The notes beneath the pieces are model-generated. The model saw only the letters and a program-made list of their open reading frames with translations, did no database searches and had not been told where the DNA came from. Below are positions 9,316-24,282 of a DNA stretch of 56,253 bases, piece by piece (position 1 is the first letter of the stretch; each line of letters begins with the position of its first letter). A program made the translations under genes and the position numbers. The stretch is from a virus, in IMG/VR virus record IMGVR_UViG_3300030451_004176, positions 1-56,253 of that record; one strand, written 5' to 3'.

Positions 9316-9342
9316 CAAAGATATGAAAAAGATTTTACGCAA
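9316..9342 (-). promoter_or_regulatory. Promoter for the tiny-gene operon, overlapping the 9323 (+) gene start
   Basis: The minus strand has a -7 TATCTTTG at 9316-9323 and a TTG at 9340-9342, 16 nt apart, slightly short of the usual 17-23. The -7 element covers the first base of the ATG of the opposite gene at 9323, and the -33 lies inside that gene. Transcription of one should interfere with the other. Confidence 0.55.
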
Positions 9343-9796
9343 ACCTAAGCAACGAATCACCCCTTCTCATAATTATTTAAAGTACTGGCGAATCATTCGC
9401 TACTGGGCTAAAGCCAAGTATGGTTTTAGTGTGGGTGATCTGGATATGATGCTGTTTCTATACAGCGAAAACTTTTTTAACAAAAAAACATTTCACCAGT
9501 ATGCCGAGATGATGTCTTGGGATAGAACTCGTTTTAAAAAACTAATCGACAGAGGTTATATTAGATTATGGAGAGAAGGAAAGGGTAGAGAAGGAAATAT
9601 ATATGAACTGTCTTTTAAGGGTAAAAGAGCCGTCAGCTCTATCTATGCCAAACTAAATGGTGAAGAAATAGGGGAAGACCCAAGAGTAAATCCTTTATTT
9701 AAGGATGATGTGAAGTATATGGATAAGGTTTATCGAAATGCGATTATAGAACTAAACAAGTCTATAAAACAACCACCACGTCACGCTCTTGAATAA
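9323..9796 (+). CDS. Winged-helix-like putative regulator, opposite to its neighbours
   Basis: This 157-residue basic protein has a helix-rich N-terminal half: YLKYWRIIRYWAKAKYGFS, DLDMMLFLYSENFF, then MSWDRTRFKKLIDRGYIRLW and a wing-like IYELSFKGKRAVSSIY. This is the pattern of MarR-like winged helices and of a small family in Bacteroidetes phages (from memory). It lies between two leftward blocks. Its start overlaps their promoter, and its 3' end overlaps groES by 35 bp. A transcription regulator is the likely role, inferred from fold and position. Confidence 0.65.
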   Translation: MKKILRKPKQRITPSHNYLKYWRIIRYWAKAKYGFSVGDLDMMLFLYSENFFNKKTFHQYAEMMSWDRTRFKKLIDRGYIRLWREGKGREGNIYELSFKGKRAVSSIYAKLNGEEIGEDPRVNPLFKDDVKYMDKVYRNAIIELNKSIKQPPRHALE

Positions 9797-10019
9797 CTAC
9801 GTAAGATTTATCTAAAATAATTACTTCGTGTGCTTGCGCCTTGTCGTAATAGATCTCGTCTCCTTTATTAATCGTTTCCACTAGGTCACTAGTCTCTACC
9901 ACATTTGCTTTCTTGTATCTGAGTTGATTCTTATCGTCACTACTTAACAAAAGCCCAGAGTTAGTCTTTACTTCTTCTGTAATCGGATCAATCAGTATGT
10001 ATTTATTTACCGGCTTCAT
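9762..10019 (-). CDS. groES: Co-chaperonin GroES (Cpn10)
   Basis: This 85-residue protein follows the Cpn10 pattern: KPVNKYILIDP at the start, a mobile-loop-like segment (about residues 15-35) with a hydrophobic SGLLL, then KKANVVE, INKGDEIYYDK and a final strand VIQERDVVVVL. It should cap the phage or host GroEL ring in the cytoplasm and help fold phage proteins, as T4 gp31 does. It is about 10 residues shorter than cellular GroES. Its ATG lies inside the 3' end of groEL (17-bp overlap), so the order is groEL-groES, the reverse of most bacterial operons. Confidence 0.85.
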   Translation of the reverse strand: MKPVNKYILIDPITEEVKTNSGLLLSSDDKNQLRYKKANVVETSDLVETINKGDEIYYDKAQAHEVIILDKSYVVIQERDVVVVL

Positions 10020-11619
10020 AATTACTGCTTACTTCTCTCGCCATTGTAATAATAGCGTTAGTGCTTAATATAGTCGTAGCCACTGATACAGCATTGACTA
10101 GTGCGTTCTTAGTTACTTTAAGTGGATCTAATATCCCCATCTTATACATATCACCCCACATATTGTTCTTCACATCGTATCCCATATTTACCTCACTGTT
10201 CTGGATCAACGTCTCTATCTCCGCAATCTCCATATCCTCCATCCCTGCGTTTTTACATATATTAAAGAAAGGCTCGGTAATACAATACCTATACAGCAAT
10301 ATCTCTCCAAAACTAGCACCAGTATCCATTAATTTAGAAGACGCCCTATATAAACTAACTCCTCCTCCTGGAAGAACCCCTTCTTCAAGTGCTGAACTCA
10401 CAGCACACACCGCATCCTCGATGCGGTCAAATTTTTCTTTCTGCTCAATGTCAGAGTGCGCACCCACAAAGATTACTCCTATCCCACCTTTCAAACTAGC
10501 TATACGCTCTGTTACAAAGTCTCGCTCACCCTTAGCCGTTAAACTACCGTGCTGTATCTTGAGCTCCTTAACCCTTTCCTCAATAGCTACCTTATCACCT
10601 TTGCCACCAATCATCACGGTGTCTTCTCTACTTACTATTACCTTCTCTGCTATACCAAGCTGGTCTAACGATATCATATTTAAATCATCACCCGTAGACT
10701 CGCTTATATAACTACCGCCAGTAGCCAAAGCAATGTCGCCCATTATCTCCTGCTTCTTATAGCCAAACTTAGGTGGAGTAATATTACATATCTTTAAACC
10801 ATTTCTTGCTGCATTAGCCGCAAGCGTATTCACTACGTTCTGGCTGCAGTCTGCAATAATAAGCAGCTCCTTGCCCTGATTAATAATTGGTTTTAATATA
10901 TTCTCAATTTGCAATACATTATTAATAACGTGATCCGTAATTAGCACATAACAGTTCTCCAGCACACACTCGTCCCGCTTGTGATTATTGATAAACGCAT
11001 TGTTGGTATATCCCCTCTGCAGTTTAATACCATCATATACCTCAGCATAAGTCTCTGAAGTCTCCGAGTTCTCTACCGTCACCACGCCATCAGCACCCAC
11101 CTTCTCGTAAGCCTCCGCAATGATCTTTCCTATCTCCCTGTCGTTATTTGCCGATATAGAAGCCACATCAAGCAGTCTCTTTTTATTTAGCTTCTTAGCC
11201 ATTCTCTCCAGCTCTTTGACTACTTTATCCCTTCCTTCGTTGATCTGCTTTACAAGCTTAGGAATATTGATATCTGGCTGCTCCTCCAACTCCTCCAACC
11301 CCTGTTCTATCAATGCTTCCGCCAGAACGATGCTCGTTGTCGTACCATCTCCAGCCGAATCTGCAGTGTTTTGAGAAGCCTCTCTAATCATCTGAACCGC
11401 TAGATTTTCTACCGGATCTAACAAGTAAACCGACTTAGCTACAGTCACTCCATCCTTTGTAACTGTAATACCACGGGTATGATTAGGGGATTCTATAACT
11501 ACTGTTTTACCAGCCGGACCAAGCGTGCTCTTTACTGCGTTGCAGATTTTAGTAATACCGCTTTTTAACTTGCGCTTGGCCTTCTCATCAAAGACCAACT
11601 CTTTAGGGGTGTAGGACAT
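10003..11619 (-). CDS. groEL: Chaperonin GroEL (Cpn60)
   Basis: This 538-residue full-length chaperonin has the ATP-site motifs LGPAGK (33-38), TKDG (54-57) and AGDGTTTS (89-96). It also has DRIEDA (398-403, with the catalytic Asp), EEGVLPGGG (412-420) and MGILDP near the C-terminus. The Gly/Met-rich tail of many bacterial GroELs is absent; it ends SSNYEAGK. It should form a folding ring with the GroES encoded next. The gene leads the leftward arm behind a canonical TTG-N19-TATATTTG promoter and the conserved control element. A host-derived origin is plausible; the phage carries it as a complete gene. Confidence 0.93.
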   Translation of the reverse strand: MSYTPKELVFDEKAKRKLKSGITKICNAVKSTLGPAGKTVVIESPNHTRGITVTKDGVTVAKSVYLLDPVENLAVQMIREASQNTADSAGDGTTTSIVLAEALIEQGLEELEEQPDINIPKLVKQINEGRDKVVKELERMAKKLNKKRLLDVASISANNDREIGKIIAEAYEKVGADGVVTVENSETSETYAEVYDGIKLQRGYTNNAFINNHKRDECVLENCYVLITDHVINNVLQIENILKPIINQGKELLIIADCSQNVVNTLAANAARNGLKICNITPPKFGYKKQEIMGDIALATGGSYISESTGDDLNMISLDQLGIAEKVIVSREDTVMIGGKGDKVAIEERVKELKIQHGSLTAKGERDFVTERIASLKGGIGVIFVGAHSDIEQKEKFDRIEDAVCAVSSALEEGVLPGGGVSLYRASSKLMDTGASFGEILLYRYCITEPFFNICKNAGMEDMEIAEIETLIQNSEVNMGYDVKNNMWGDMYKMGILDPLKVTKNALVNAVSVATTILSTNAIITMAREVSSNYEAGK

Positions 11620-11647: not shown

Positions 11648-11677
11648 CAAATATATAAATAAATATTATACTACCAA
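11648..11677 (-). promoter_or_regulatory. groEL promoter (TTG-N19-TATATTTG)
   Basis: The minus strand has TTG at 11675-11677, a 19-nt spacer and TATATTTG at 11648-11655. This matches the Bacteroidetes primary-sigma consensus exactly. The ATG at 11619 is 29 nt below. The TTG stands a few bases from the end of the conserved control element at 11683-11791, so a bound factor could touch RNA polymerase. Confidence 0.75.
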
Positions 11678-11682
11678 ACTAA

Positions 11683-11791
11683 AGTGCCGATGTGACGATT
11701 TTTACTATGTTTCAAGCTACTTATAAAAAAAAGCACTTATATATACTTTTATTTTTTTTTATTTATTTTCTTATAAAAAACGTCACTATAG
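11683..11791 (-). repeat. Control element A (inverted partner of 18867-18977)
   Basis: On the minus strand this reads ACTATAGTGACGTTTTTT, an A/T-rich centre, then AAAATCGTCACATCGGCACT. The same ends occur in element B on the plus strand upstream of the primase. In both, GTGACG and ATCGTCA lie 82 nt apart. A second GTGACG occurs 19 bp away at 11800-11805. The internal GTGACG...CGTCA forms an inverted pair. It is probably a shared operator or phage control site. Confidence 0.65.
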
Positions 11792-11805
11792 TACTAAAAC
11801 GTCAC

Positions 11806-11821
11806 AAAATAGACCTATTTT
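11806..11821. promoter_or_regulatory. Near-perfect 16-bp palindrome AAAATAGACCTATTTT
   Basis: AAAATA and TATTTT pair perfectly around a GACC centre. It lies beside the extra GTGACG copy of element A. This is typical of a dimeric repressor site, but no binding protein is proven. Confidence 0.4.
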
Positions 11822-11832
11822 AAAGAAACTAA

Positions 11833-11905
11833 CCCCAGGACACTGCTGATGGTAGGCTTTAACTACAGCTGGCTTTTCACTTCTCAGCAGAAAAACGTCC
11901 CAAGG
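11833..11905 (+). ncRNA. Candidate structured RNA in the control region
   Basis: The segment can fold with GGAC (838-841)/GTCC (897-900) as the outer helix, CTGCTGA (843-849)/TCAGCAG (884-890) as a perfect 7-bp helix, and an inner GTAG (852-855)/CTAC (863-866) hairpin (last three digits of 11xxx). It is far more GC-rich than its surroundings. No promoter or U-run flanks it clearly, and the reverse strand could fold equally well, so the strand is a guess. Replication-origin structure is an alternative. Confidence 0.35.
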
Positions 11906-11987
11906 ATCTTACTGTAGTAACATACAGTATATATAAAGATACTATATATATATTAGATATGTAGAGGTAGGGGGTTATATATTGATA

Positions 11988-12113
11988 TACGTCTACGTGT
12001 GCGCATACGAAAACGATTTTTTTTGACATAGGGGGGTATAAAATAAATTTTTTTTTGTAGGATTTTTTGGCGTTTTTACGTGTGTGCGTGTGTGCGTAGT
12101 TAGTGCGTAGTGG
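11988..12113. repeat. Two TACGTGTG/GTGCG-rich blocks
   Basis: Block 1 (11988-12009) contains TACGTCTACGTGTGCGCA. Block 2 (12077-12113) contains TACGTGTGTGCGTGTGTGCG followed by further GTGCGTAG copies. They flank T-rich tracts. Such short GT-rich repeats in AT-rich DNA suit iterons or an unwinding element; this is inference. Confidence 0.4.
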
Positions 12114-12189
12114 TTAACGTTATATCTACGTTTAGTCCACGTAATAAATTTAAAATTTAAATCAAAGTAAATTCAATAATTTATTTTTC

Positions 12190-12422
12190 GTTTAACGTAT
12201 TAAACATTAACCTGATCAACAGATTAAGTTTAAATCTTAAACCTTCCCTTCAAGACATTCAGAGGGAAGGAATAGAATCTATCCCACAAATAATTAACCT
12301 AAACAAAAATATTTTTTATTGTTGTTTTACAGGTGCTAAAATCAAACAAAAGTTTATTAATTTTTTTTTCATCTCTGTTTAACAGGTTAGAAAACTTTGT
12401 TGTTTTGTTTAACGTGCTAAAC
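12190..12422. repeat. Cluster of GTTTAAC-type palindromic sites
   Basis: Related short palindromes occur at 12190-12205 (GTTTAACGTATTAAAC), 12324-12341 (GTTTTACAGGTGCTAAAA), 12377-12395 (GTTTAACAGGTTAGAAAAC) and 12407-12422 (GTTTAACGTGCTAAAC). The last three lie 53 and 30 bp apart, just upstream of the first rightward promoter. They could be operators for early transcription or iterons of the origin. Confidence 0.45.
12242..12270. other. Isolated hairpin with 8-bp perfect stem
   Basis: CCTTCCCT (12242-12249) pairs perfectly with AGGGAAGG (12263-12270) across a 13-nt loop. There is no T-run on either side, so it is not a clear terminator. Position in the non-coding region suggests an origin or regulatory structure. 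Confidence 0.4.
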
Positions 12423-12482
12423 TTTTTTTTCTTATCTGTTGTTTCCCTGTTATGTTCAAAATCAAAAAGGTTAAACAAAATT

Positions 12483-12514
12483 TGGATTGTATTTGTTTTA
12501 TTGCCTATAATTGT
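12483..12514 (+). promoter_or_regulatory. Putative first rightward (early) promoter
   Basis: TTG at 12483-12485, a 21-nt spacer and TATAATTG at 12507-12514, which differs from TAnnTTTG at one base. It lies 56 nt before the first rightward gene (12571) and just after the palindrome cluster. Confidence 0.5.
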
Positions 12515-12570
12515 ACCAACGAAACGCAAACGAATTGCAAACAAACAAACTTAAATTAAAATAAACAATT

Positions 12571-12672
12571 ATGAATAAATATCAAAAAAACATCTTATGG
12601 TTTAACTTGAGTAAAATCATAACATTAACAACAATCCTAATAATAACAATATCAGTGCTTGCACAGGTATAA
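12571..12672 (+). CDS. Membrane micropeptide, paralogue of 13305-13493
   Basis: This 33-residue peptide starts MNKYQKNILWFNLSKII and then forms one hydrophobic helix (TLTTILIITISVLAQV). It follows AAACAATTATG, the start context used by neighbouring genes. The N-terminal half matches the protein at 13305 (MDKYTKNMIWLNLSQII). It is the first gene of the rightward arm, so it is probably expressed early. An effect on the host membrane or on superinfection is possible but unproven. Confidence 0.6.
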   Translation: MNKYQKNILWFNLSKIITLTTILIITISVLAQV

Positions 12673-12678
12673 AAACAA

Positions 12679-12694
12679 GGGGGCGAAAGCCCCC
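12679..12694 (+). terminator. GGGGGC-GAAA-GCCCCC hairpin
   Basis: A 6-bp GC stem closed by a GAAA tetraloop, 6 nt after the stop of the micropeptide gene. It is followed by AATAAAAACA, not a U-run, so on this strand it may be an attenuator or an mRNA-stabilising end. On the opposite strand it is followed by TTGTTTTT, which is more terminator-like and could stop leftward readthrough. Confidence 0.5.
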
Positions 12695-12710
12695 AATAAA
12701 AACAAATAAA

Positions 12711-13082
12711 ATGCTAAGAACTAACTCAAAGAAATATTTAGATAATATTCAAACCTATTTATTAAGTGCAATAGATGGAAAAGATTACGGAATAAAAACA
12801 GATACACCAAAAGAAAAATTAGATTTTTTATTTGATTGTTTTGAAAGTGAATTTAATTATAAAAATAATCAACTGAGATATCCAAATTTTCAAAACAGGT
12901 TTGCAAATTGGTTGCAAGGTTTACCTTCTGCTATTAATATTCCATACCAATACAATAAAATTTTAGAACTATCTAAAAACTTATTAGAAGTGGATACCTT
13001 GAGCGAAAAATTAGAGGATCAAATTATTAAAAACTACTGGTCATTTATGGCGTATCACATAATCAAATTAAAAAACAAATAA
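12711..13082 (+). CDS. Conserved hypothetical early protein
   Basis: This 123-residue protein contains FDCFESEFNYKNNQLRYPNF, then RFANWLQGLPSAINIPYQ and a C-terminal helix ending KLKNK. The LPSA/NIP segment recalls a small uncharacterised family in Bacteroidetes phages and prophages (from memory). It is likely cytoplasmic and mostly helical. The gene follows the GAAA hairpin and precedes a promoter region at 13233. Confidence 0.65.
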   Translation: MLRTNSKKYLDNIQTYLLSAIDGKDYGIKTDTPKEKLDFLFDCFESEFNYKNNQLRYPNFQNRFANWLQGLPSAINIPYQYNKILELSKNLLEVDTLSEKLEDQIIKNYWSFMAYHIIKLKNK

Positions 13083-13232
13083 AAAAGAGTATTGAAAAAA
13101 GAAAAAAATAAAACGGAAACGCAATCCGAAAAAGACATTTAACAGATGATAAACCACTAAATTTTTGGGGATTTTGACGAAATGAAAGAAAATTTATGAG
13201 GATTGAAACAATACTTTTTTTTAAAAAAACAT

Positions 13233-13262
13233 TTGCACATTAAAAAAACTTTAATATCTTTA
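13233..13262 (+). promoter_or_regulatory. Rightward promoter (TTG-N19-TATCTTTA)
   Basis: TTG at 13233-13235, exactly 19 nt, and TATCTTTA at 13255-13262, one base from TAnnTTTG. It lies in the 222-bp gap between 13082 and 13305, in which I see no other feature. It should drive the second membrane peptide and probably the structured RNA after it. Confidence 0.6.
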
Positions 13263-13304
13263 CCAACGATTAACAAACAATAAACAAACAAAAAACAAAT
13301 AATT

Positions 13305-13493
13305 ATGGATAAGTACACAAAAAATATGATTTGGTTGAATTTGAGTCAAATCATTATAACAACAACAATTTTTATTTTAACAATCATTGTAATGGTTCAA
13401 TGTACATCAACACAAAATGTACATACAAACGATCTACATAAATACAACAAGAAAAGTTTATATAACGATTGTTACATATTCGCAAACAAATAA
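13305..13493 (+). CDS. Small membrane protein, paralogue of 12571-12672
   Basis: This 62-residue protein has an N-terminus matching the 33-residue peptide (KNxIWxNLSxII) and one membrane helix (about residues 15-32). A polar tail of about 30 residues follows with three Cys or Tyr-rich patches. An MVQC after the helix weakly resembles a lipobox, but charge and spacing do not convince. It has its own promoter and is followed by a structured RNA with a U-run. Function unknown. Confidence 0.6.
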   Translation: MDKYTKNMIWLNLSQIIITTTIFILTIIVMVQCTSTQNVHTNDLHKYNKKSLYNDCYIFANK

Positions 13494-13501
13494 AATAAAA
13501 T

Positions 13502-13576
13502 AAATAGGGTTAAAGTTAGGAGAAACCAACTTTGTAAAATTATACTATTTGTCGTGTATAGTTCCCCTATTTTTTT
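13502..13576 (+). ncRNA. Candidate three-way-junction RNA ending in a U-run
   Basis: Three helices of 8 bp each can form. P1 is 13502-13509 (AAATAGGG) with 13565-13572 (CCCTATTT). P2 is AAAGTT(A)GG / CCAACTTT (13512-13533), with one bulged A and an AGAAA loop. P3 is 13538-13545 with 13556-13563, including one G-U, around a 10-nt loop. Linkers are 2, 4 and 1 nt. The P1 3' strand runs into seven U's, so the fold would also act as a terminator. It starts 8 nt after the stop at 13493 and ends 23 nt before gp88. It could be a riboswitch, an sRNA or an elaborate terminator. Confidence 0.55.
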
Positions 13577-13599
13577 AAAAATAAAACAAACAATTAAAT

Positions 13600-14325
13600 A
13601 TGGAAGCAATTACAAAGCAATATAAAGAAGTAAAAAACTTACTATCTAAAGGAGGTAATGCAAAACTAAATAAGAATGAAATTACGACATTCAATTTATC
13701 ACTTGCACCACACACACAGAACGCAAAGGGCATAAACTTATGCCCTAAAGCTTCAAAAGGCTGTGCATTAGCTTGTTTATTTACGGCAGGACGTGGTAAG
13801 TTTACCAACGTACAACAATCAAGAATAAATAAAACAAATTACTATTTATTTGATAGGCAAAAATTTATTAATCAACTAGCAAAGGAGATCAACAAAATAG
13901 CTATCAAAAGTAAATTGACAAATGAAATGTTTGCTTTAAGGCTAAACACATTGAGCGATGTAGATTTTGTATACCAATTAAAAAAGTATGCGAATTTAGA
14001 TTTATTAAATGACGATACATACAAAAATATTATAGTGTATGACTATACGGCAATACCTGGAAAAGTGAAAAAGTATTTGGGAAGCAGGTATCACGTAACA
14101 TTATCACGAAAGGAAGACAATGAACAGGACGTTATGAACGTATTAAATGCAGGTGGCAATGTGTCGATAGTATTTAGAAATAAATTACCCGATACTTACA
14201 AAGGATTTAAAGTAATAGACGGAGATAAAACAGATTTAGAAATGACTAAACATAAAAATGTAGTATTAGGATTGAAGGCAAAAGGAGATGCCAAAAAAGA
14301 TAGTACTGGGTTTGTAGTAAATTAA
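13600..14325 (+). CDS. Phage gp88-like protein
   Basis: This 241-residue protein matches the 'gene product 88' pattern known from mycobacteriophages and Bacteroidetes phages (from memory). It has TTFNLSLAPHT, then NLCPKASKGCALACLFTAGRG, then QQSRINKTNYYLFDRQKFIN and LRLNTLSDVDF. The three conserved Cys near residues 48-61 suggest a metal or Fe-S site. The biochemical role is not established. It follows the candidate structured RNA at 13502-13576, which may control it. Confidence 0.75.
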   Translation: MEAITKQYKEVKNLLSKGGNAKLNKNEITTFNLSLAPHTQNAKGINLCPKASKGCALACLFTAGRGKFTNVQQSRINKTNYYLFDRQKFINQLAKEINKIAIKSKLTNEMFALRLNTLSDVDFVYQLKKYANLDLLNDDTYKNIIVYDYTAIPGKVKKYLGSRYHVTLSRKEDNEQDVMNVLNAGGNVSIVFRNKLPDTYKGFKVIDGDKTDLEMTKHKNVVLGLKAKGDAKKDSTGFVVN

Positions 14326-14342
14326 AAATAAAACAAATAATT

Positions 14343-14618
14343 ATGGAGCAAAATAAACTAATAGCAGAATTTATGGAAGTGCATCAAATAATGCACGATG
14401 GATATAGTGAGTATGACTTTGACGATAATACATTAGATGTATTACACGAAGAAGAACTACAATACCACTCCTCTTGGGATTGGTTGATGCCAGTAATTGA
14501 CAAGTGTTATCAAGAGCATATGAGTAAGCGTATTTCTGATGCAGTTATGACTTGCGATATAGACACCACTTACAAAGCAGTAGTAGAATTTATAAAAGAA
14601 TATAATAACTATAACTAA
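14343..14618 (+). CDS. Conserved acidic hypothetical protein
   Basis: This 91-residue acidic protein begins MEQNKLIAEFM and contains LQYHSSWDWLMPVIDK, a motif common in short proteins of Flavobacterium and related phages (from memory). Its function is unknown. It starts after ACAAATAATTATG, like its neighbours. Confidence 0.7.
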   Translation: MEQNKLIAEFMEVHQIMHDGYSEYDFDDNTLDVLHEEELQYHSSWDWLMPVIDKCYQEHMSKRISDAVMTCDIDTTYKAVVEFIKEYNNYN

Positions 14619-14630
14619 AAACAAACAATT

Positions 14631-14882
14631 ATGAAAACATATATATTTGACCAACTAAATACAGCTGATGGATACGAAATCTATTGGCTACACGATGAGC
14701 GACACGATGCCATTGATCCTAATGACTTGTACTATTACAAAGATGAATTCGAGGAAAAATGTAGAGAGATTGTATTTGATGAGGACGTTGACTACATCGA
14801 CTACGTATTTGAAGAAGAAATACAAGAATGGATACGAGAAGCAGAAGCAATACAGAAAGACCAAGAAAACTTTTACAGATAA
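14631..14882 (+). CDS. Strongly acidic small protein
   Basis: This 83-residue protein is rich in Asp, Glu and Tyr (DPNDLYYYKDEFEEKCREIV, then EEIQEWIREAEAIQ). The net charge is strongly negative, which is a feature of DNA mimics and of many early phage inhibitors, but no family was recognised. It starts after ACAAACAATTATG. Confidence 0.6.
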   Translation: MKTYIFDQLNTADGYEIYWLHDERHDAIDPNDLYYYKDEFEEKCREIVFDEDVDYIDYVFEEEIQEWIREAEAIQKDQENFYR

Positions 14883-14904
14883 ACAAACAATAAAACAAAC
14901 AATT

Positions 14905-15099
14905 ATGAACAAACAAAATTTAATAAATGACATAAAGATCCAAGCCACAAAACTTTTCAACAAGAATGTAACTAATTTACATTACTCAGAGAATAGGTTG
15001 AATGCTTTGGAGTTAGACCAACTAATAAATTTATTGGTGTGGTTCAAAAAAGAAAATGACAAAATACTAACAATTAAAAGATTAGATAAAGATGAATAA
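14905..15099 (+). CDS. Small hypothetical protein
   Basis: This 64-residue protein begins MNKQNLINDIKIQATKLFNK and continues with a helical NALELDQLINLLVWFKKEND. I chose the ATG at 14905 because it follows the local start motif ACAAACAATTATG. The same frame is open further upstream, but that part lies inside the previous gene. Function unknown. Confidence 0.6.
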   Translation: MNKQNLINDIKIQATKLFNKNVTNLHYSENRLNALELDQLINLLVWFKKENDKILTIKRLDKDE

Positions 15100-15274
15100 A
15101 AAAATAAATCAGAAAGACGTAGAGAAATACGCATTGTGGGTGCTGAATGATTGTATGCAACCACACGATGAAATAGAATGGTTGGTTAACACAATACTAA
15201 ATAGCGATGATGTGCACCACGTGATTGAAGAAGTAATAACAGATATTGCTCAATCAACCAAAGATGAAATTTAA
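15092..15274 (+). CDS. Small acidic hypothetical protein
   Basis: This 60-residue protein begins MNKKINQKDVEKYALWVLND and has an acidic helical C-terminus (VHHVIEEVITDIAQSTKDEI). It overlaps the end of the previous gene by 8 bp. No family recognised. Confidence 0.55.
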   Translation: MNKKINQKDVEKYALWVLNDCMQPHDEIEWLVNTILNSDDVHHVIEEVITDIAQSTKDEI

Positions 15275-15309
15275 TCAAAAAATAATAACAATTAAAAACG
15301 ATAAGTAAT

Positions 15310-15540
15310 ATGACACAACTAAAAGTAACAAACGTAAGATACTTTGAGACACGGAGAGGTCTTGGGTATGAATGCCGAACAAATCACAAAGGAATAAGCA
15401 TTTGGAATGACGGCAACGGTGGTATGACATTCATAGATGGAAATGAATACACCAAAGATTATAGAGAAGTGAAGTTATATAGTAAAATATATACAGACAC
15501 AATGTTAGAAAAATTAATTGATGATTATGAAAATGTATAA
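15310..15540 (+). CDS. Small hypothetical protein
   Basis: This 76-residue protein begins MTQLKVTNVRYFETRRGLGY and has a beta-rich core (GISIWNDGNGGMTFIDG) and a helical end. The N-terminal pattern recalls short phage proteins of unknown function. Its end overlaps the next small gene. Confidence 0.6.
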   Translation: MTQLKVTNVRYFETRRGLGYECRTNHKGISIWNDGNGGMTFIDGNEYTKDYREVKLYSKIYTDTMLEKLIDDYENV

Positions 15541-15685
15541 AGTATATAGATATTATGGTGGTGAATATCCACAAGATGTTTCTTGGTCTTGTACCTATGA
15601 GGGGGCAAAACTGCTTGGATCAGTAGCAGAACATTTTGAAATAGAAGAAGTTAAACTAAAAAAATACAGTAATGAAACTATTTAA
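15527..15685 (+). CDS. Small hypothetical protein
   Basis: This 52-residue protein begins MKMYKVYRYYGGEYPQDVSW and ends KLKKYSNETI. The start is ambiguous (ATGs at 15521, 15527 and 15533). It overlaps the previous gene's end and the next gene's start by 14 bp each, which is normal in this packed segment. Function unknown. Confidence 0.45.
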   Translation: MKMYKVYRYYGGEYPQDVSWSCTYEGAKLLGSVAEHFEIEEVKLKKYSNETI

Positions 15686-15848
15686 AAAATACACCAGATG
15701 TATGAGACACAAGCAATACCTCGAAGAAAGGGTGCACAGATTACATTATCAAATATGTATGGATGCCGTTGAACGGGGTATGGTAGACCCACTAAAAAGA
15801 GAATTATTAATTAAATATAATGAAAGGCTAAAGAAATGGAAATCATAA
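15672..15848 (+). CDS. Small basic hypothetical protein
   Basis: This 58-residue protein begins MKLFKKYTRCMRHKQYLEER and ends RLKKWKS. It is basic, helical and has two Cys. It overlaps both neighbours. Nothing shows its function. Confidence 0.45.
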   Translation: MKLFKKYTRCMRHKQYLEERVHRLHYQICMDAVERGMVDPLKRELLIKYNERLKKWKS

Positions 15849-15949
15849 AAGAGATAAAAAAACAATTAAAAGAACTTGACAAAGAGATCAAGAGACAAAA
15901 AAGAATAGAACAAATAATTAAAAATAAAATAACAAATGAAAAAAGATAA
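15836..15949 (+). CDS. Lys-rich helical micropeptide
   Basis: This 37-residue peptide (MEIIKEIKKQLKELDKEIKR at the start) is a heptad-like charged helix, probably a short coiled coil. It overlaps both neighbours by 13-14 bp. Function unknown. Confidence 0.4.
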   Translation: MEIIKEIKKQLKELDKEIKRQKRIEQIIKNKITNEKR

Positions 15950-16049
15950 ATTAAAAGAAAAGCTAATCGAGAAGGGAGTTTCTAAAGATTGGTTAGAAAA
16001 AAACTTTGTTCACATAACAGATGAAGAAGATGACGAACAGAGACATTGA
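15936..16049 (+). CDS. Small hypothetical peptide
   Basis: This 37-residue peptide begins MKKDKLKEKLIEKGVSKDWL and ends with an acidic ITDEEDDEQRH. It overlaps the next gene by 29 bp. The KxxLIEKGVSKDWLEKNF pattern looks like a genuine short helical domain. No function is known. Confidence 0.4.
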   Translation: MKKDKLKEKLIEKGVSKDWLEKNFVHITDEEDDEQRH

Positions 16050-16245
16050 AATAATAAACGGCATCGCGGATCTAAAAGAATTAAATACGCAATTAAAAGA
16101 ATTAAAGTGGTGGCAGTACATACAAAAAAAAGAAATAAAAGCCACCATTGATGCCATAAAATTTATATATAAATTAAATAAACCAAACGATGAACTTAGA
16201 AAAATTTATACAAACGCAAAGAGAAATGGCAATGGAACTACTTGA
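16021..16245 (+). CDS. Small hypothetical protein
   Basis: This 74-residue protein begins MKKMTNRDIEIINGIADLKE (an alternative start is the second Met at 16030) and has a basic helical middle (LKWWQYIQKKEIKATIDAIK). It overlaps the next gene by 56 bp. No family recognised. Confidence 0.5.
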   Translation: MKKMTNRDIEIINGIADLKELNTQLKELKWWQYIQKKEIKATIDAIKFIYKLNKPNDELRKIYTNAKRNGNGTT

Positions 16246-16333
16246 CTTTGGAAACTCAAGAGAAAAAGCCGAAGGCATAGGAATGCTTAGAGTGTTACAA
16301 GATTTAGATATTTTAATAAAAGCTAAAAAATAA
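16190..16333 (+). CDS. Small hypothetical protein
   Basis: This 47-residue protein begins MNLEKFIQTQREMAMELLDF and continues GNSREKAEGIGMLRVLQDLD. It is an amphipathic helix pair. It overlaps the previous gene by 56 bp in another frame. Function unknown. Confidence 0.45.
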   Translation: MNLEKFIQTQREMAMELLDFGNSREKAEGIGMLRVLQDLDILIKAKK

Positions 16334-16347
16334 TTCACCAACATTTC

Positions 16348-16378
16348 TTGCATATTTTACTAACAATAATTATATTAG
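16348..16378 (+). promoter_or_regulatory. Possible rightward promoter
   Basis: TTG at 16348-16350, 20 nt, then TATATTAG at 16371-16378, one base from TAnnTTTG. It sits in the only clear gap (49 bp) in this packed segment. The -7 lies 4 nt before the ATG at 16383, so the transcript would be almost leaderless. Confidence 0.35.
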
Positions 16379-16382
16379 CACA

Positions 16383-16559
16383 ATGGGAAAAAGTAAAGAT
16401 ATGTATATGTTTTATCATCAATTGATGACCATTGATGACGTATACTTACAACAAGAGTATTTATTAAACGAACAAGAATATGACGAAAACAGAATCAATA
16501 CAAAGTCTACTAAGGAAGGTCTGCAACAGGCTGAGAGTAGCACAATCAAATATATTTGA
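16383..16559 (+). CDS. Small hypothetical protein overlapping the next gene
   Basis: This 58-residue protein begins MGKSKDMYMFYHQLMTIDDV and contains YLQQEYLLNEQEYDENRIN. The last 80 bp overlap the DnaA-like gene at 16480 in a different frame. That is longer than other overlaps here, so either the C-terminal part of this gene or the start of the next one may be misassigned. Confidence 0.4.
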   Translation: MGKSKDMYMFYHQLMTIDDVYLQQEYLLNEQEYDENRINTKSTKEGLQQAESSTIKYI

Positions 16560-16779
16560 TAAATCCAAAAAAAGAAAAAATATTGATGCTCGACATATGT
16601 TCTTTTACATATGTAAGCAAAACAATATAAACATTCATTACATACAGGAGTATGCTAATGATAAGTACGATCAGTATATTGATCACTCTACTATTATATA
16701 TGCACAAAATAAGATGGCAGAAAAAATAGATGATGATGCTGACTGGAGAAATCTTTATAACGAAATAACCAATAAATAA
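16480..16779 (+). CDS. DnaA domain-IV-like DNA-binding protein
   Basis: This 99-residue protein contains KKRKNIDARHMFFYIC, then IHYIQEYANDKYDQYIDHST and IIYAQNKM. It resembles the C-terminal helix-turn-helix of DnaA (basic loop, the (V)ARQxAMYL-type helix, and a D/N-HST/HAT-V signature), which binds DnaA boxes. The AAA+ part is absent. A second such protein is encoded at 24224-24598. It may bind the origin or compete with host DnaA. The resemblance is moderate and the role inferred. Confidence 0.6.
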   Translation: MTKTESIQSLLRKVCNRLRVAQSNIFDKSKKRKNIDARHMFFYICKQNNINIHYIQEYANDKYDQYIDHSTIIYAQNKMAEKIDDDADWRNLYNEITNK

Positions 16780-16786
16780 ATAAACA

Positions 16787-17038
16787 ATGAAAAAAAAACA
16801 CACGTATTTAGATCAGTTAATGGAAGAAAGTGAGTCTAGTTATAAAAATGTATTAATAGCTTTAGAAATGTTACATAAAAAAGAACTGGAAGCAATAGAA
16901 ATGTTGCAAAGCAATGGTTACAAAGTAATTCATCCAAAATATAAATCAAATAAGGTAACAAAAGAAGGATTTAAAAAATACTGGGAAGATAAATATATAT
17001 ATTATAAAAAGCTTATAAATAAAATAAACAATAAATAA
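16787..17038 (+). CDS. Small helical hypothetical protein
   Basis: This 83-residue protein begins MKKKHTYLDQLMEESESSYK and has a Glu/Met-rich helix (ALEMLHKKELEAIEMLQ) and a basic C-terminal part (VTKEGFKKYWEDKYIYYKK). No family recognised. It is spaced 7 bp from both neighbours in the replication and recombination operon. Confidence 0.6.
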   Translation: MKKKHTYLDQLMEESESSYKNVLIALEMLHKKELEAIEMLQSNGYKVIHPKYKSNKVTKEGFKKYWEDKYIYYKKLINKINNK

Positions 17039-17045
17039 ATAAACA

Positions 17046-17606
17046 ATGAGTAAATTAAATTTAATACAATCGGAGTTGAAGGCTCCTAAAAACCAATACA
17101 ATAGTTTTGGCAAATACAAGTATCGTTCTTGTGAGGACATACTTGAGGCCGTAAAGCCTATACTAAAGAAACACAAAGCATCTATAACACTATCTGATGA
17201 GGTGGTAGATATGGGTGGTATCGTAACTATCATAGCCACAGCTACTTACAGAGAAGGATCAGAAGAGATCAGTGTAAGTTCTTGTGCTGGTGTAGATCCA
17301 AATAGAAAAGGGATGGACATAGCACAAAGCTTCGGAAGTTCTTCATCGTATGCAAGAAAGTATGCTTTGAATGGTTTATTACTAATAGATGACACCAATG
17401 ATCCTGATGTTACCAATACACACGGAAAGACACAGGTGGTTGTAAACAAAGGCGTAATAGACATAGGAGATGCAAAATGGTCGGACTGCTTAAAGTATGT
17501 AGTGGCTAATAAACATCTTGGGTTTGATGCTGTGGTAAATGCTTTGAAAAAGAAGTATGACTTTACTCCAAAGGCATTAAATGCTATTAAAAAAGAAGTT
17601 AAGTAA
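17046..17606 (+). CDS. ERF-family single-strand annealing protein
   Basis: This 186-residue protein shows the ERF pattern: KNQYNSFGKYKYRSCEDILE (residues 15-34), VKPILKKHKASITLSD, and RKGMDIAQSFGSSSSYARKY followed by ALNGLLLIDDTNDPD. ERF proteins anneal single strands and pair with a 5'-3' exonuclease in phage recombination. The neighbouring gene, overlapping by 1 bp, encodes such a PD-(D/E)XK nuclease. The C-terminal tail (about 130-186) is variable and may bind a partner. Confidence 0.85.
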   Translation: MSKLNLIQSELKAPKNQYNSFGKYKYRSCEDILEAVKPILKKHKASITLSDEVVDMGGIVTIIATATYREGSEEISVSSCAGVDPNRKGMDIAQSFGSSSSYARKYALNGLLLIDDTNDPDVTNTHGKTQVVVNKGVIDIGDAKWSDCLKYVVANKHLGFDAVVNALKKKYDFTPKALNAIKKEVK

Positions 17607-18340
17607 TGGAGGCGATATTAAAACGCCTTGAGAATGATAAAGATTATTATGGAGAGTTCGGTAAAAAATTCTTATCGAACTCAGACATATACACTTTATT
17701 AAATAATCCTAGAGGGTTTAGGCAACCCGTACAAGAAACAAAAGCGTTGATAGAGGGTAGATACTTTCATACTTTTATGTTAGAACCCGACAAAATAGAG
17801 ACGTTTAAAATTAGCACATCAAGATCAAGAAATAGTACAGCGTATAAAAAAGATTTATATGACTATGATGAAAAAATGCTTATACTACAGCACGAAGTTG
17901 ATCACTTAGTAGAACTATGTAGCGTAATGAAAGCTAACTTTAAATTCTTTGATGACATCTATGCCAACACAAACAAGTATGAAGTACCTGGTGTAGTGTT
18001 TTTAAAAGGTGAGCAGTGGAAGGGAAAGGCAGATGTACTATGTGAGGATAAGATTATAGATCTAAAAACCACATCAGATATATCCAAATTTCATTTATCA
18101 GCAAAGAAATACAACTATGATAGTCAGGCATACATATACCAACAGATATTTGGAGTGCCTGTACATTTTTACGTCATAGATAAAACAAGTATGTTGCTTG
18201 GTATTTATAAACCAACTGAATCATTTTTAGAAAGCGGAGAGAGAAAAGTAGAGAGAGCAGTTAATATCTATCGTCAGTTTTTTTCTGAAGATTCTGAGAT
18301 ATCTATTGATGATTTTTATTTTGATGAATTACTAAATTAA
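17606..18340 (+). CDS. PD-(D/E)XK recombination exonuclease (RecE/YqaJ-like)
   Basis: This 244-residue protein has the active-site run WKGKADVLC (138-146; GKAD at 140-143) and IDLKTT (151-156, the D-x-K pair). It then has YDSQAYIYQQIFG (171-183), with the helix and Gln of phage-type nucleases. An EGRYFHTFML segment near residue 50 carries the first acidic residue and His. It should make 3' single-stranded tails for the ERF protein encoded just upstream. The overlap TAATG indicates coupling. The fold is well supported; polarity is inferred from the pairing. Confidence 0.8.
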   Translation: MEAILKRLENDKDYYGEFGKKFLSNSDIYTLLNNPRGFRQPVQETKALIEGRYFHTFMLEPDKIETFKISTSRSRNSTAYKKDLYDYDEKMLILQHEVDHLVELCSVMKANFKFFDDIYANTNKYEVPGVVFLKGEQWKGKADVLCEDKIIDLKTTSDISKFHLSAKKYNYDSQAYIYQQIFGVPVHFYVIDKTSMLLGIYKPTESFLESGERKVERAVNIYRQFFSEDSEISIDDFYFDELLN

Positions 18341-18404
18341 TTCCAGGTATGCTCACACTCTGGATTTATGTATAGATAAGTTGTGAGTAAATTAAAAACA
18401 AATA

Positions 18405-18638
18405 ATGATGACAAAAGAAAAAATATTTGCATCAGGTTTTTCTTTTAAGAGAAACGAAACAGCTCCTGAATTTGTAGTAGGGAGGCAGTCCATCAAGGTT
18501 GATGAGGCGGTAGCATTCTTAACATCACACGCTAAGAATGGTTGGGTAAACTTAGATATCAAACAAGCAAAAGGTGGTAACTACTACTGCGAGTTGGATA
18601 CTTACGAGCCCAAGAAAACTGAAGAAGTAAATTTCTAA
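18405..18638 (+). CDS. Small conserved protein, possibly ssDNA-binding
   Basis: This 77-residue protein begins MMTKEKIFASGFSFKRNETA and contains APEFVVGRQSIKVDEAVAF and GWVNLDIKQAKGGNYYCELD. The VVG..S(I/L)KVD.A..F pattern recurs in short proteins in the replication regions of Bacteroidetes phages (from memory). Its place after ERF and exonuclease suggests a role with single-stranded DNA. This is inference, and no OB-fold was proved. A 6-bp stem (CTCACA/TGTGAG) lies in the 64-bp gap upstream, and a terminator follows. Confidence 0.6.
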   Translation: MMTKEKIFASGFSFKRNETAPEFVVGRQSIKVDEAVAFLTSHAKNGWVNLDIKQAKGGNYYCELDTYEPKKTEEVNF

Positions 18639-18685
18639 CAATATGGATTTAGCGTTGATCCAAAAGAGGACAATGCTTTATCTTA

Positions 18686-18728
18686 GGGGGGTGTAGGGTA
18701 AAGTTTTGGGTGCCGCACCCCCTTTTTT
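18686..18728 (+). terminator. Rho-independent terminator
   Basis: GGGGGTG (18687-18693) pairs with CACCCCC (18716-18722), with a smaller GGGTG-CCG-CACCC alternative, followed directly by TTTTTT. It ends the ERF/exonuclease operon after the stop at 18638, 15 nt before the micropeptide at 18743. Confidence 0.7.
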
Positions 18729-18742
18729 ATAAAGAAACAATT

Positions 18743-18874
18743 ATGAAAACAATACAACACTTTTTTATAGAATTTTCAAGTAACTATTTATTATTACTAC
18801 TTATATACTTAATATTTATATTTCCATCTTTATGTTATGTTAAGTATACAAAAAGAAATAAAAAGACACTATAG
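18743..18874 (+). CDS. Single-pass membrane micropeptide
   Basis: This 43-residue peptide begins MKTIQHFFIEFSSN. It has a Leu/Ile-rich membrane helix (about residues 15-32) and a basic C-terminus (KYTKRNKKTL). It follows GAAACAATTATG, the local start motif. The stop codon TAG lies within the CACTATAGTG palindrome of control element B, which ties the gene end to the regulatory site. Function unknown. Confidence 0.5.
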   Translation: MKTIQHFFIEFSSNYLLLLLIYLIFIFPSLCYVKYTKRNKKTL

Positions 18875-18977
18875 TGACGTTTTTTTTAAAAAAAAATAAA
18901 AAAAATAAAAACTATATAAATGAATGTATTTTATATATTTACGCTAGATTTTATAACAAAATCGTCATTTCGGCACT
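18867..18977 (+). repeat. Control element B (inverted partner of 11683-11791)
   Basis: On the plus strand this reads CACTATAGTGACGTTTTTTT, an A/T-rich centre, then AAAATCGTCATTTCGGCACT, 22 nt before the primase ATG. Element A carries the same ends on the minus strand, with the same 82-nt distance between GTGACG and ATCGTCA. CACTATAGTG is a perfect 10-bp palindrome. A TATATTTA in the centre (around 18933) could be a -7 element. It is probably a shared operator. Confidence 0.65.
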
Positions 18978-18998: not shown

Positions 18999-21485
18999 AT
19001 GGATAAGAGGTACATTACACTATTTAAAAACATTAAAGAAACAAGTCAACCTTTTCATAGAGGAGTAGAAGTGGCTTTACATAGAATACAAAATGGTAAG
19101 TCAAAAGATTTAATCGAAAAGATTAGATCGTTAAAACAAAAAAATAAAATAAACGAACTAAAGAAACAACTACCTGCGATTTGCTTTAGTGGAGTATTTA
19201 GTAAAAGAAACGATGCTTCCATTCAAGAACATAGTGGTTTGATATGTTTGGACTTCGATGAGTTTTCAAGTGATGAAGATTTACAAAAGTTTAAAAAAGA
19301 CATATGCAAGGATGAGTACGTGTATAGTTGCTTCATATCACCATCAGGTAGAGGATTAAAAGTGTTGGTTAAAATACCTAATGAAATAGATTCACACGTT
19401 TTTTTCTTTGAGGCATTGAACGATCACTTTAATTCAACTCATTTTGATTTAACTTGTAAGAACTTATCAAGGGTTTGTTATGAAAGTTATGATCCAGAGA
19501 TTTATATAAACGAAGAATCAAGACTATGGGTGGAGAAGTTAGAAAGAATAACTCCCGTAGAAGTAAAGACCAGTGAAGTATCTATTCCTATTACAGATGA
19601 AAGTAAGATTATTGAAATACTTACTAATTGGTGGGATAAAAAATACCCTATGCAAGAAGGGCAAAGAAACAACAACCTGTATATTTTGGCTGCAGCTTTT
19701 AACGATTTTGGTATAAGTAAATCTTTAGCTGAGTTTGTTGTGAAAAGATACGAGTCGGAAAGTTTTAGCGCAAAAGAAATTAAGCAAACTATTGACTCAG
19801 CTTATTCACAAGTGGCTAACTTTGGATCTAAATCATATGAAGATACTCAGAAGATATCTGAAATAAAATCAAAGATAATACAGGGGAGGACAAAAGATTC
19901 TATCGTTGCAGAACTAAGAGAAGAGTACGAAGAAGATAAGATTAAAGAAGTAGTAAACAAAATTAGCCTGGAAAATTCTAATGCTGACTTTTGGACAAGA
20001 TCTTCCAAAGGTGTTATTAAAATATTTCATTTAAAGTTTAAAAACTTTTTAGAAGAAGCAGGGTTTTACAAGTATAATCCACAGGGGAGTACAAGTTATG
20101 TGTTTGTAAGAGTAAAGAATAATTTGATTGATAACACCACTGAGAAAGAAATTAAAGACTTTGTTCTTAATTATTTAATGGAGGTAAATGATGTGGATGT
20201 TTATAACTATTTTGCGGAGAACACAAAATATTTTAGGGAAGAGTTTTTAACTTTACTATCTTCCGTAGATGTTCTTTTTATGCAAGACACAAAAAATATT
20301 TCTTATTTGTATTATACAAATTGTGCAGTTAAGATATCTCCTAATAAAATTGAATCCATAGATTACATAGACTTAGGTGGTTTTGTATGGAAAGACCACG
20401 TTATACCACGTAAGTTTGCTTTTTGTGATTATGATGATTGTGATTATCAAAAGTTTATATCTAATGTTTCTGCGGCTAACATTGAAAGAGTAAGGTCAAT
20501 GGAAAGCACTATTGGATATTTAATGCACGGATATAAAAATTTATCTTACTGCCCAGCTGTCATACTCTATGATGAAGTCTTGAGTAATGATCCTGAAGGA
20601 GGTACAGGTAAAGGTATATTTATGAATGCATTACAACATATGAAAAAGTTAGTGGTAATAGATGGTAAAGCTTTTCATTTTGAAAGAGCATTTCCTTATC
20701 AATTAGTTTCGGCAGATACTCAGCTACTTTGTTTTGATGACGTTAGAAAGAACTTTGACTTTGAAAGATTGTTTAGTGTGATTACAGAGGGACTTACTTT
20801 AGAGAAGAAAAATAAAGATGCAATAAAAATTCCTTTTGACAAATCTCCCAAAGTTGCTATCACTACTAACTACGCTATAAGAGGTGATGGTAATTCTTTT
20901 GAAAGAAGAAAGTGGGAATTAGAATTGGCACAACATTACAATTCAAGTTACACGCCATTAGATGAGTTTGGTAAATTGTTATTTGGCGATTGGGATAAGT
21001 CTGAGTGGTGTCAGTTTGACAACTATATGATTCATTGCTTACAGCTTTATATGAATAACGGATTAATTAAAAGTACTTTTGTTAATCTTAAAATTAAGAA
21101 GCTAGCACAAAAAACTTGTCACGAATTTATTGAGTGGCTTGGCTTAATAGACGGAAACATACCTAATGAAGATTTTGAGAATGGAGGTAAGGTTTATAAA
21201 CAAGATTTATATTTTGATTTTATATCTGACAACCCTGACTTTGCGCCAAAAGCAAAGAGAACGATTTCCAGGACTGAGTTTTATAGATGGTTGAAATCAT
21301 ATGGTGTGTATAAAACAAGTGTAAACCCATTAGAAGGAAAAGACGGCAGTAAGGGAAGGTGGATACAAATAATAAACAAACACGCAAGAGAGGAAGTAAA
21401 AGAAATACCTTTTGAAAATCCGGAAACAATTATAGAAGATGATCTATTTGTAGATGGAAATTCAATAATAGAACCACCATTTTAA
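18999..21485 (+). CDS. Primase-helicase (BT4734-like prim-pol plus SF3-type helicase)
   Basis: This 828-residue replication protein has an N-terminal BT4734/VirE-N-like domain (about 15-180). It shows GLICLDFDEF (80-89, the acidic pair), SPSGRGLKVLVKI (114-126) and DLTCKNLSRVCYESYDPEIY (150-169), as in prim-pol-type primases. A PriCT-like helical linker follows (about 205-275). The C-terminal helicase has a Walker A PEGGTGKG (532-539), Walker B QLLCFDD (575-581) and an ERRKWELEL sensor/Arg segment. It should unwind and prime the phage origin. Control element B lies directly upstream. Confidence 0.85.
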   Translation: MDKRYITLFKNIKETSQPFHRGVEVALHRIQNGKSKDLIEKIRSLKQKNKINELKKQLPAICFSGVFSKRNDASIQEHSGLICLDFDEFSSDEDLQKFKKDICKDEYVYSCFISPSGRGLKVLVKIPNEIDSHVFFFEALNDHFNSTHFDLTCKNLSRVCYESYDPEIYINEESRLWVEKLERITPVEVKTSEVSIPITDESKIIEILTNWWDKKYPMQEGQRNNNLYILAAAFNDFGISKSLAEFVVKRYESESFSAKEIKQTIDSAYSQVANFGSKSYEDTQKISEIKSKIIQGRTKDSIVAELREEYEEDKIKEVVNKISLENSNADFWTRSSKGVIKIFHLKFKNFLEEAGFYKYNPQGSTSYVFVRVKNNLIDNTTEKEIKDFVLNYLMEVNDVDVYNYFAENTKYFREEFLTLLSSVDVLFMQDTKNISYLYYTNCAVKISPNKIESIDYIDLGGFVWKDHVIPRKFAFCDYDDCDYQKFISNVSAANIERVRSMESTIGYLMHGYKNLSYCPAVILYDEVLSNDPEGGTGKGIFMNALQHMKKLVVIDGKAFHFERAFPYQLVSADTQLLCFDDVRKNFDFERLFSVITEGLTLEKKNKDAIKIPFDKSPKVAITTNYAIRGDGNSFERRKWELELAQHYNSSYTPLDEFGKLLFGDWDKSEWCQFDNYMIHCLQLYMNNGLIKSTFVNLKIKKLAQKTCHEFIEWLGLIDGNIPNEDFENGGKVYKQDLYFDFISDNPDFAPKAKRTISRTEFYRWLKSYGVYKTSVNPLEGKDGSKGRWIQIINKHAREEVKEIPFENPETIIEDDLFVDGNSIIEPPF

Positions 21486-23891: not shown

Positions 23892-24282
23892 AGTAGAGGA
23901 CTACTTTATGAAAAAACTACAAAATGATTTTCAGCTAGATGTTTCTTTAAAAATAGCTGAATTAATTAATCAAACTGTGCACCAAATAAAACCAAACTCA
24001 AAAGTAGTAGAAGGTCACGATGATTTAAAAACAGCTTTACAAGAAGATATATATACGGTAGATTATTATGGAGGTGTTATCCACACTGAAAAAATTCCTA
24101 CCTTTTTTGAGTTGGAGGTAGAAACTTTACTTACAGAAGACCAGCCTCTTGTTGCTTTAATAGATATAAAAGAAGTGGAATGTGATAGATACTTAGATTT
24201 AATCAACAAAAAAAAATATCTAAATGAATCAATTAAATATAATAAAACAGAAGATAGAAGAGTTATACGATCTCAATCTTGA
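23881..24282 (+). CDS. Conserved phage protein of unknown function
   Basis: This protein is 133 residues from the ATG at 23881 (MIYEVEDYFMKKLQNDFQLD). The frame is also open from 23851, but the later start fits the end of VRR-NUC better. It is acidic, with a helical N-terminus and a beta-rich middle (EDIYTVDYYGGVIHTEKIPT, then FFELEVETLL). It overlaps the next gene by 59 bp. Function unknown. Confidence 0.55.
   Translation: MIYEVEDYFMKKLQNDFQLDVSLKIAELINQTVHQIKPNSKVVEGHDDLKTALQEDIYTVDYYGGVIHTEKIPTFFELEVETLLTEDQPLVALIDIKEVECDRYLDLINKKKYLNESIKYNKTEDRRVIRSQS

What the first reader, a model, noticed from the sequence alone, without database searches (positions are those of the whole stretch)
11683..18977. 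Two related ~110-bp control elements in inverted orientation
Minus-strand 11791-11683 (before groEL) and plus-strand 18867-18977 (before the primase) share ACTATAGTGACGTTTTTT at one end and AAAATCGTCAnnTCGGCACT (18 of 20 fixed) at the other. The distance from GTGACG to ATCGTCA is 82 nt in both, and the centres are A/T-rich. GTGACG...CGTCA is inverted inside each. They suggest one regulator that controls both arms or the origin, or an inverted-repeat boundary of the 7-kb early segment. I do not recognise this as a known element.
Basis: partly seen in the sequence, partly recalled or inferred. Interest (0 to 1): 0.75.

Follow-up and report, generated by a model that had tools for sequence, protein, structure and literature searches.

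The report
Paired replication-origin modules of a phage
The two look-alike control elements are two copies of a conserved DNA module, most likely replication origins, that the phage's own primase-helicase recognises through a short letter code which changes from phage to phage together with two or three amino acids of that enzyme.

Summary
In about 150 related phage contigs the same two places, upstream of groEL and of the primase, carry a module: short tandem sites 8 or 9 bp apart, about 83 bp of very AT-rich DNA, then inverted tandem sites. The site is a 7-mer, [AG]TGNYNA, with genome-specific variable letters (window GTGACGA; relatives ATGTCGA, GTGTTAA and others). Letters 4 and 5 track residues 781/786 and 787 in a predicted winged-helix wing at the C-terminus of the primase-helicase (18999-21485). 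Among 40 protein families the best-covarying column for each letter lies in this protein. [quoted passage not shown] Best explanation: duplicated iteron origins bound by a D5-like primase-helicase; the groEL copy abuts a Bacteroidetes-type promoter and may double as an operator. Binding is inferred from covariation; origin function is untested. The window's own modules are degenerate (gap 88 bp; one clear forward site at the primase).

The parts
11799..11805 (-). outer forward site GTGACGT of the groEL module
   Evidence: 19 bp from the next site
11780..11786 (-). forward site GTGACGT of the groEL module
11699..11779 (.). AT-rich centre of the groEL module (86% A+T), candidate DNA-unwinding region
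11692..11698 (+). inverted site 1 of the groEL module (GTGACGA)
11684..11690 (+). inverted site 2 of the groEL module (GTGCCGA), 8 bp from site 1
   Evidence: tandem spacing of 8 is the commonest in the family
11648..11678 (-). Bacteroidetes-type promoter TTTG-N19-TATATTTG of groEL, directly next to the inverted pair
   Evidence: in relatives TAnnTTTG lies most often 34-36 nt from the first inverted site (23 of 55 groEL modules)
10003..11619 (-). groEL
18874..18880 (+). forward site GTGACGT of the primase module
18881..18961 (.). AT-rich centre of the primase module (90% A+T)
18962..18968 (-). inverted site 1 of the primase module (ATGACGA)
18970..18976 (-). inverted site 2 of the primase module (GTGCCGA)
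18999..21485 (+). primase-helicase (828 aa): BT4734-like_N, PriCT_1 and DUF5906 domains, C-terminal winged helix; proposed protein that binds both modules
   Evidence: Pfam; covariation; model
21330..21368 (+). codons for residues 778-790 of the primase-helicase: beta-hairpin wing LEGKDGSKGRWIQ with the covarying residues K781, G786, R787

Best explanation
Each element is an iteron module, and the phage's own primase-helicase binds both copies. Its C-terminal winged-helix domain reads the 7-mer [AG]TGNYNA, and the wing residues 781/786 and 787 set letters 4 and 5. Copies of the protein assemble on the two facing groups of sites, melt the AT-rich centre and load as self-loading helicases, so each module is a replication origin or, as for ori and crr of phage P4, one of two cis elements needed together. 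Elongation would use the host polymerase. Because the inverted pair at groEL touches the -33 box of the groEL promoter, binding there should also switch that promoter, and at the primase it may autoregulate. Shown by computation: module layout, genome-specific letters, within-genome agreement, covariation with the wing. Inferred: binding, melting, origin function and any effect on transcription.
For: A scan blind to spacing and sequence finds tandem spacing 8/9 and a gap of 79-85 bp in 61 of 76 non-redundant hits; the register-corrected gap is 81-85 in 92 of 99 modules. The best words at groEL and primase agree in 18 of 55 genome entries (some entries near-identical) against 4.2 expected and a maximum of 11 in 2000 permutations; 10 of 12 where both calls are confident. 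Letter 4 = A goes with K781+G786 (13 of 13) or R781+A/M786 (10 of 10), and letter 4 = T with R781+G786 (29 of 29). Where letter 4 is not A, letter 5 C/T goes with R/K787 (15 and 17 of 33 non-redundant, one exception; Fisher 1.5e-8; letter 4 Fisher 1e-11; these ignore phylogeny). Over all columns of 40 protein families the best column for each letter is in the primase-helicase. Independent pairs on the tree go the predicted way 4 of 4 (letter 4) and 3-4 with none opposite (letter 5). New genomes: letter 4 right in 13 of 13, letter 5 in 9 of 13; 7 of 7 for both where the module score is at least 12. AlphaFold2 places 778-782 and 786-790 as the two strands of a hairpin (pLDDT about 85-90); structural neighbours of residues 49-152 of the model are mostly winged helices, RFX1 among them, which reads DNA with its wing (PMC4333399). 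In four further, essentially complete genomes and the window the clusters lie at these two places. No family A, B or C DNA polymerase found, controls positive. PICI origins have the same layout (PMC6092414), and SaPI Rep uses its C-terminal domain on iterons (PMC7581432).
Against: Origin function is untested; the GC-skew switch at about 12 kb coincides with the change of gene strand and proves nothing. The window's own modules are degenerate: gap 88 instead of 81-85, only one clear forward site at the primase. No PDB relative was found by sequence, and structural Z-scores are modest (at most 5.6). Neither independent-pair test is significant alone, because few independent changes exist; the sign test over 8 pairs (p 0.008) pools two tests and used the 56-genome tree. 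In 12 genomes with letter 4 = A, letter 5 is C although residue 787 is K, so the code for letter 5 holds only for the other genomes. The threshold of 12 in the held-out test was chosen after seeing the result; the four misses are one clade with weak module calls. Many primase loci give no clear module with this method.
Confidence: 0.72

Rival explanations
1. The modules are operators, not origins: the primase-helicase binds them to repress or activate its own gene and the groEL operon, and replication starts elsewhere.
For: In groEL modules TAnnTTTG lies most often 34-36 nt from the first inverted site, so the sites cover about -47 to -33; extra sites overlap the primase start codon in relatives.
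Against: The bound protein is a replication enzyme, the AT-rich centre and symmetric layout are those of PICI origins (PMC6092414), and 39 of 47 primase modules have no TAnnTTTG.
Confidence: 0.15
2. A dedicated phage regulator (the wHTH of 9323-9796 or a DnaA-like protein) binds both elements.
For: The wHTH gene lies next to groES in most groEL loci and DnaA-C domains are present.
Against: Their recognition helices stay the same while the motif changes; neither ranks among the best covarying families for letter 4, and the wHTH is only ninth for letter 5.
Confidence: 0.05
3. ACTATAG marks promoters of a T7/SP6-like phage RNA polymerase.
For: CACTATAG resembles the core of T7 and SP6 promoters (own knowledge).
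Against: The string is not conserved even in the nearest relatives; no RNA_pol match in the genome, but the control did not ring, so this is inconclusive.
Confidence: 0.02
4. The elements are an inverted-repeat boundary of an invertible or mobile 7-kb segment, or RNA hairpins in 5' UTRs.
For: GTGACG...CGTCA is inverted within each element.
Against: Both modules share one orientation in relatives; the sites also occur as direct repeats at 8, 9, 11 and 21 bp; covariation is with a protein.
Confidence: 0.03

Closest known systems
PICI/SaPI replication origins with Rep or Pri-Rep (PMC6092414, PMC7581432)
   Same: Two sets of short iterons flank an AT-rich region; the replication initiator helicase binds the iterons with its C-terminal domain; iteron sequences differ between elements (own knowledge for the last point).
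   Different: Here two modules per genome, upstream of groEL and of the primase rather than directly downstream of rep; the carrier is a full phage with its own virion genes, related to phages of Flavobacteriia; spacing is nearly fixed (8/9 and about 83 bp).
Phage P4 alpha protein with ori and crr (own knowledge; mentioned in PMC6092414)
   Same: Fused primase-helicase with a C-terminal winged helix; two iteron clusters kilobases apart; host polymerase used.
   Different: Sequence relation to alpha not shown here; both clusters have the facing layout; iterons vary between relatives.
Rep-iteron codes of geminiviruses (PMC12548392)
   Same: Iterons of close relatives differ and pair with their cognate Rep protein.
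   Different: Different enzyme (rolling-circle Rep), different genome type.
RFX1-type winged helix that reads DNA with its wing (PMC4333399)
   Same: Wing residues are proposed to read the bases.
   Different: Transcription factor; only a weak structural match (Z 5.3).

Membership tests
[quoted passage not shown]
PICI/SaPI-type origin | initiator recognises the iterons with its C-terminal domain | tested here: inconclusive
   strong covariation and predicted winged helix, but no binding assay
PICI/SaPI-type origin | origin directly 3' of the rep gene | tested here: not met
   modules lie 5' of the primase and 5' of groEL
PICI (phage satellite) | satellite that depends on a helper phage for its virion | tested here: not met
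   window is a 56-kb virus record; one search lists large proteins that look like terminase, portal, capsid and tail genes (own reading)
P4 alpha/ori-crr | primase and helicase in one protein | tested here: met
   BT4734-like_N, PriCT_1, DUF5906 in one 828-aa protein
P4 alpha/ori-crr | two separated cis elements with the same iterons | tested here: met
P4 alpha/ori-crr | homology to alpha, including its C-terminal domain | tested here: inconclusive
   no PDB match by sequence; winged-helix fold only
Replication origin | replication starts there | not testable with these tools
   needs experiment; GC skew ambiguous
T7-like phage promoter | conserved promoter core | tested here: not met
   the ACTATAG string is not conserved in the nearest relatives
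T7-like phage promoter | phage-encoded single-subunit RNA polymerase | tested here: inconclusive
   no match, but no control genome rang

The most novel reading that the evidence does not exclude
A large group of phages carries duplicated PICI-like origins that also act as the switch between early and late transcription, and initiator specificity drifts through a readable two- or three-residue wing code, so that closely related phages become replication-incompatible or mutually non-interfering.
Probability: 0.3. Interest if true: 0.8.

Novelty: new variant of a known kind. Interest (0 to 1): 0.62.

Why it matters
[quoted passage not shown] Here the same layout appears, twice per genome, across a large group of full phages. 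The paired variation of iteron letters and wing residues gives a code that can be tested directly by swapping one or two residues, which would show how D5-like initiators choose their origin and how that choice changes during evolution. It also gives a way to locate origins in uncultured phages from sequence alone.

Tried and rejected
Search for the exact 18-mer and 20-mer in viral contigs: none and one near-identical relative, so the long strings were dropped as the conserved unit. The 9323 wHTH and DnaA-C proteins as binders: no covariation. Distances between inverted 6-mers without a motif model: too noisy from AT-rich words. First covariation ranking by adjusted mutual information: small families of about 20 genomes scored as high as or higher than the primase, an effect of clade structure, and letter 5 did not stand out; solved by calling motifs from the modules and by non-redundant sets. 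Letter 6 (G/A/C) and letter 1 (A/G): no clear protein partner; A and G mix inside one genome. PDB search by sequence with the whole protein and the C-terminal profile: no relative. Foldseek: no match below E 0.001. Rfam: nothing. GC skew: ambiguous.

Full report
What is there. The window is a whole 56,253-base virus record of a phage with groEL/groES, an ERF/exonuclease pair, a primase-helicase and a SNF2-like helicase. Its nearest annotated relative is MW202828, with 51-58% identity in GroEL and primase; hosts of similar phages are Flavobacteriia. The two elements of the finding are real, at the stated places, and far beyond chance at the TCGGCACT end.

What is conserved. I collected about 150 related loci in IMG/VR with the primase and GroEL as queries and later further pieces and genomes. 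Even in the nearest relatives the 18-mer has changed. What stays is a pattern: short sites of the form [AG]TGNYNA, tandem at 8 or 9 bp, then about 83 bp of AT-rich DNA, then the same sites inverted. It is found upstream of groEL and of the primase. A scan that was free to choose tandem spacing 7-11, gap 60-110 and any 7-mer found this geometry in 61 of 76 non-redundant hits above the null; in a common register the gap is 81-85 bp in 92 of 99 modules.

The letters are genome-specific. Words include TGTCGA, TGACGA, TGTTAA, TGTTGA, TGTCAA, TGTTCA, TGACAA and TGCTCA. The best word at groEL equals the best word at the primase in 18 of 55 genome entries, against 4.2 expected by permutation and 11 at most; the 55 include a few near-identical contigs, which inflates the count somewhat, and in the 12 entries with confident calls on both sides 10 agree. 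In MW202828, the phages behind L107, L004 and L110, and the window, the clusters of sites lie at these two places, with scattered single sites elsewhere.

The window's version. Sites are GTGACGT (11805-11799 and 11786-11780, minus), GTGACGA and GTGCCGA (11692-11698 and 11684-11690, plus) at groEL; and GTGACGT (18874-18880, plus), ATGACGA and GTGCCGA (18968-18962 and 18976-18970, minus) at the primase. The gap is 88 bp in both, and one forward site is missing or degenerate, so the window's lineage (with L002/L082 and L003/L083) deviates from the family norm. The centres are 86% and 90% A+T.

Which protein reads the letters. Three candidates were looked at first. The wHTH encoded at 9323 keeps the same recognition helix (SWDEPRFHRLL) in genomes with seven different words. 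The DnaA-like protein of 16480 keeps SHSTIIHGYKK across motif classes. In the primase-helicase, columns 781 and 787 stand out for letters 4 and 5. With letters called from the modules alone, A at letter 4 goes with K781+G786 or with R781 and A/M786, and T with R781+G786, without exception in 52 genomes; where letter 4 is not A, C/T at letter 5 goes with R/K787 with one independent exception. The window fits: GTGACGA with K781 and R787. Among all columns of 40 protein families from these loci, the single best column for each letter is in the primase-helicase.

How solid this is. The Fisher values (1e-11 and 1.5e-8) ignore phylogeny. On a tree of residues 1-700 there are about 5 changes of letter 4 and 8 of letter 5; all 4 independent pairs for letter 4 and 3-4 of 4-5 for letter 5 go the predicted way and none the other way. 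Pooled over the 56-genome tree this is 8 of 8 pairs that differ, p 0.008. In 13 genomes not used before, letter 4 was predicted correctly in 13 and letter 5 in 9; the four misses form one clade with module scores near the null limit, and with a score of at least 12 both letters were right in 7 of 7, a cut chosen afterwards.

Structure. The AlphaFold2 model of residues 645-828 (mean pLDDT 76.5, pTM 0.53) has helices, then a helix at 758-773 and a two-stranded hairpin at 778-782 and 786-790. The covarying residues lie on the two strands of this hairpin, next to its tip. The best structural neighbours are mostly winged-helix domains with Z up to 5.6, including RFX1, a protein in which the wing and not the recognition helix reads the major groove (PMC4333399). 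Z-scores of this size show only a common fold.

Function. A primase-helicase that reads two sets of iterons around an AT-rich centre is the arrangement of PICI origins; [quoted passage not shown] SaPI Rep recognises its origin with its C-terminal domain and appears to bind the iterons as two hexamers (PMC7581432). No family A, B or C polymerase was found in the window, with positive controls, so the host polymerase is the likely elongating enzyme. I therefore propose that the modules are origins bound by the phage's own initiator. At groEL the inverted pair lies directly upstream of TTTG-N19-TATATTTG (11678-11648, minus), a Bacteroidetes-type promoter, and in relatives the -7 box lies most often 34-36 nt from the first inverted site, so a role in transcription is also likely there. 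In relatives a conserved CTAACTTATTGAT stretch outside the modules shows that both point the same way along the genome.

What is not known. Binding, melting, origin use and the effect on groEL have not been shown. Letters 1 and 6 have no clear partner in the protein. Whether one module alone suffices, or both are needed like ori and crr of P4, is open.

Noticed in passing
16480-16779 and 24224-24598: Two small proteins with only the DNA-binding domain IV of DnaA (Bac_DnaA_C); conserved in most relatives, function unknown.
   Followed up: partly
9323-9796: wHTH-like protein (phrog_17028), convergent with groES and conserved next to it in nearly all groEL loci.
   Followed up: partly
L094, L085, L006 and others, upstream of groEL; mirrored at the primase: Conserved CTAACTTATTGAT(TATTAATACTT) stretch about 205 nt upstream of groEL (28 of 52 non-redundant regions, nearly all in one orientation); not found next to the window's modules.
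   Followed up: partly
18999-21485, residues 32-174: N-terminal part resembles CRISPR-associated primase-polymerase type B (NF040562, below its cut-off).
   Followed up: no
IMGVR_UViG_3300030101_004148 (L024, L176, L178): A 105-kb contig with two primase genes about 60 kb apart; two phages joined or a chimera.
   Followed up: no
L004, L005, L006, L011: Nearly identical phages differ in letter 1 (A or G) at many of their sites together, without a visible partner change in the primase.
   Followed up: partly
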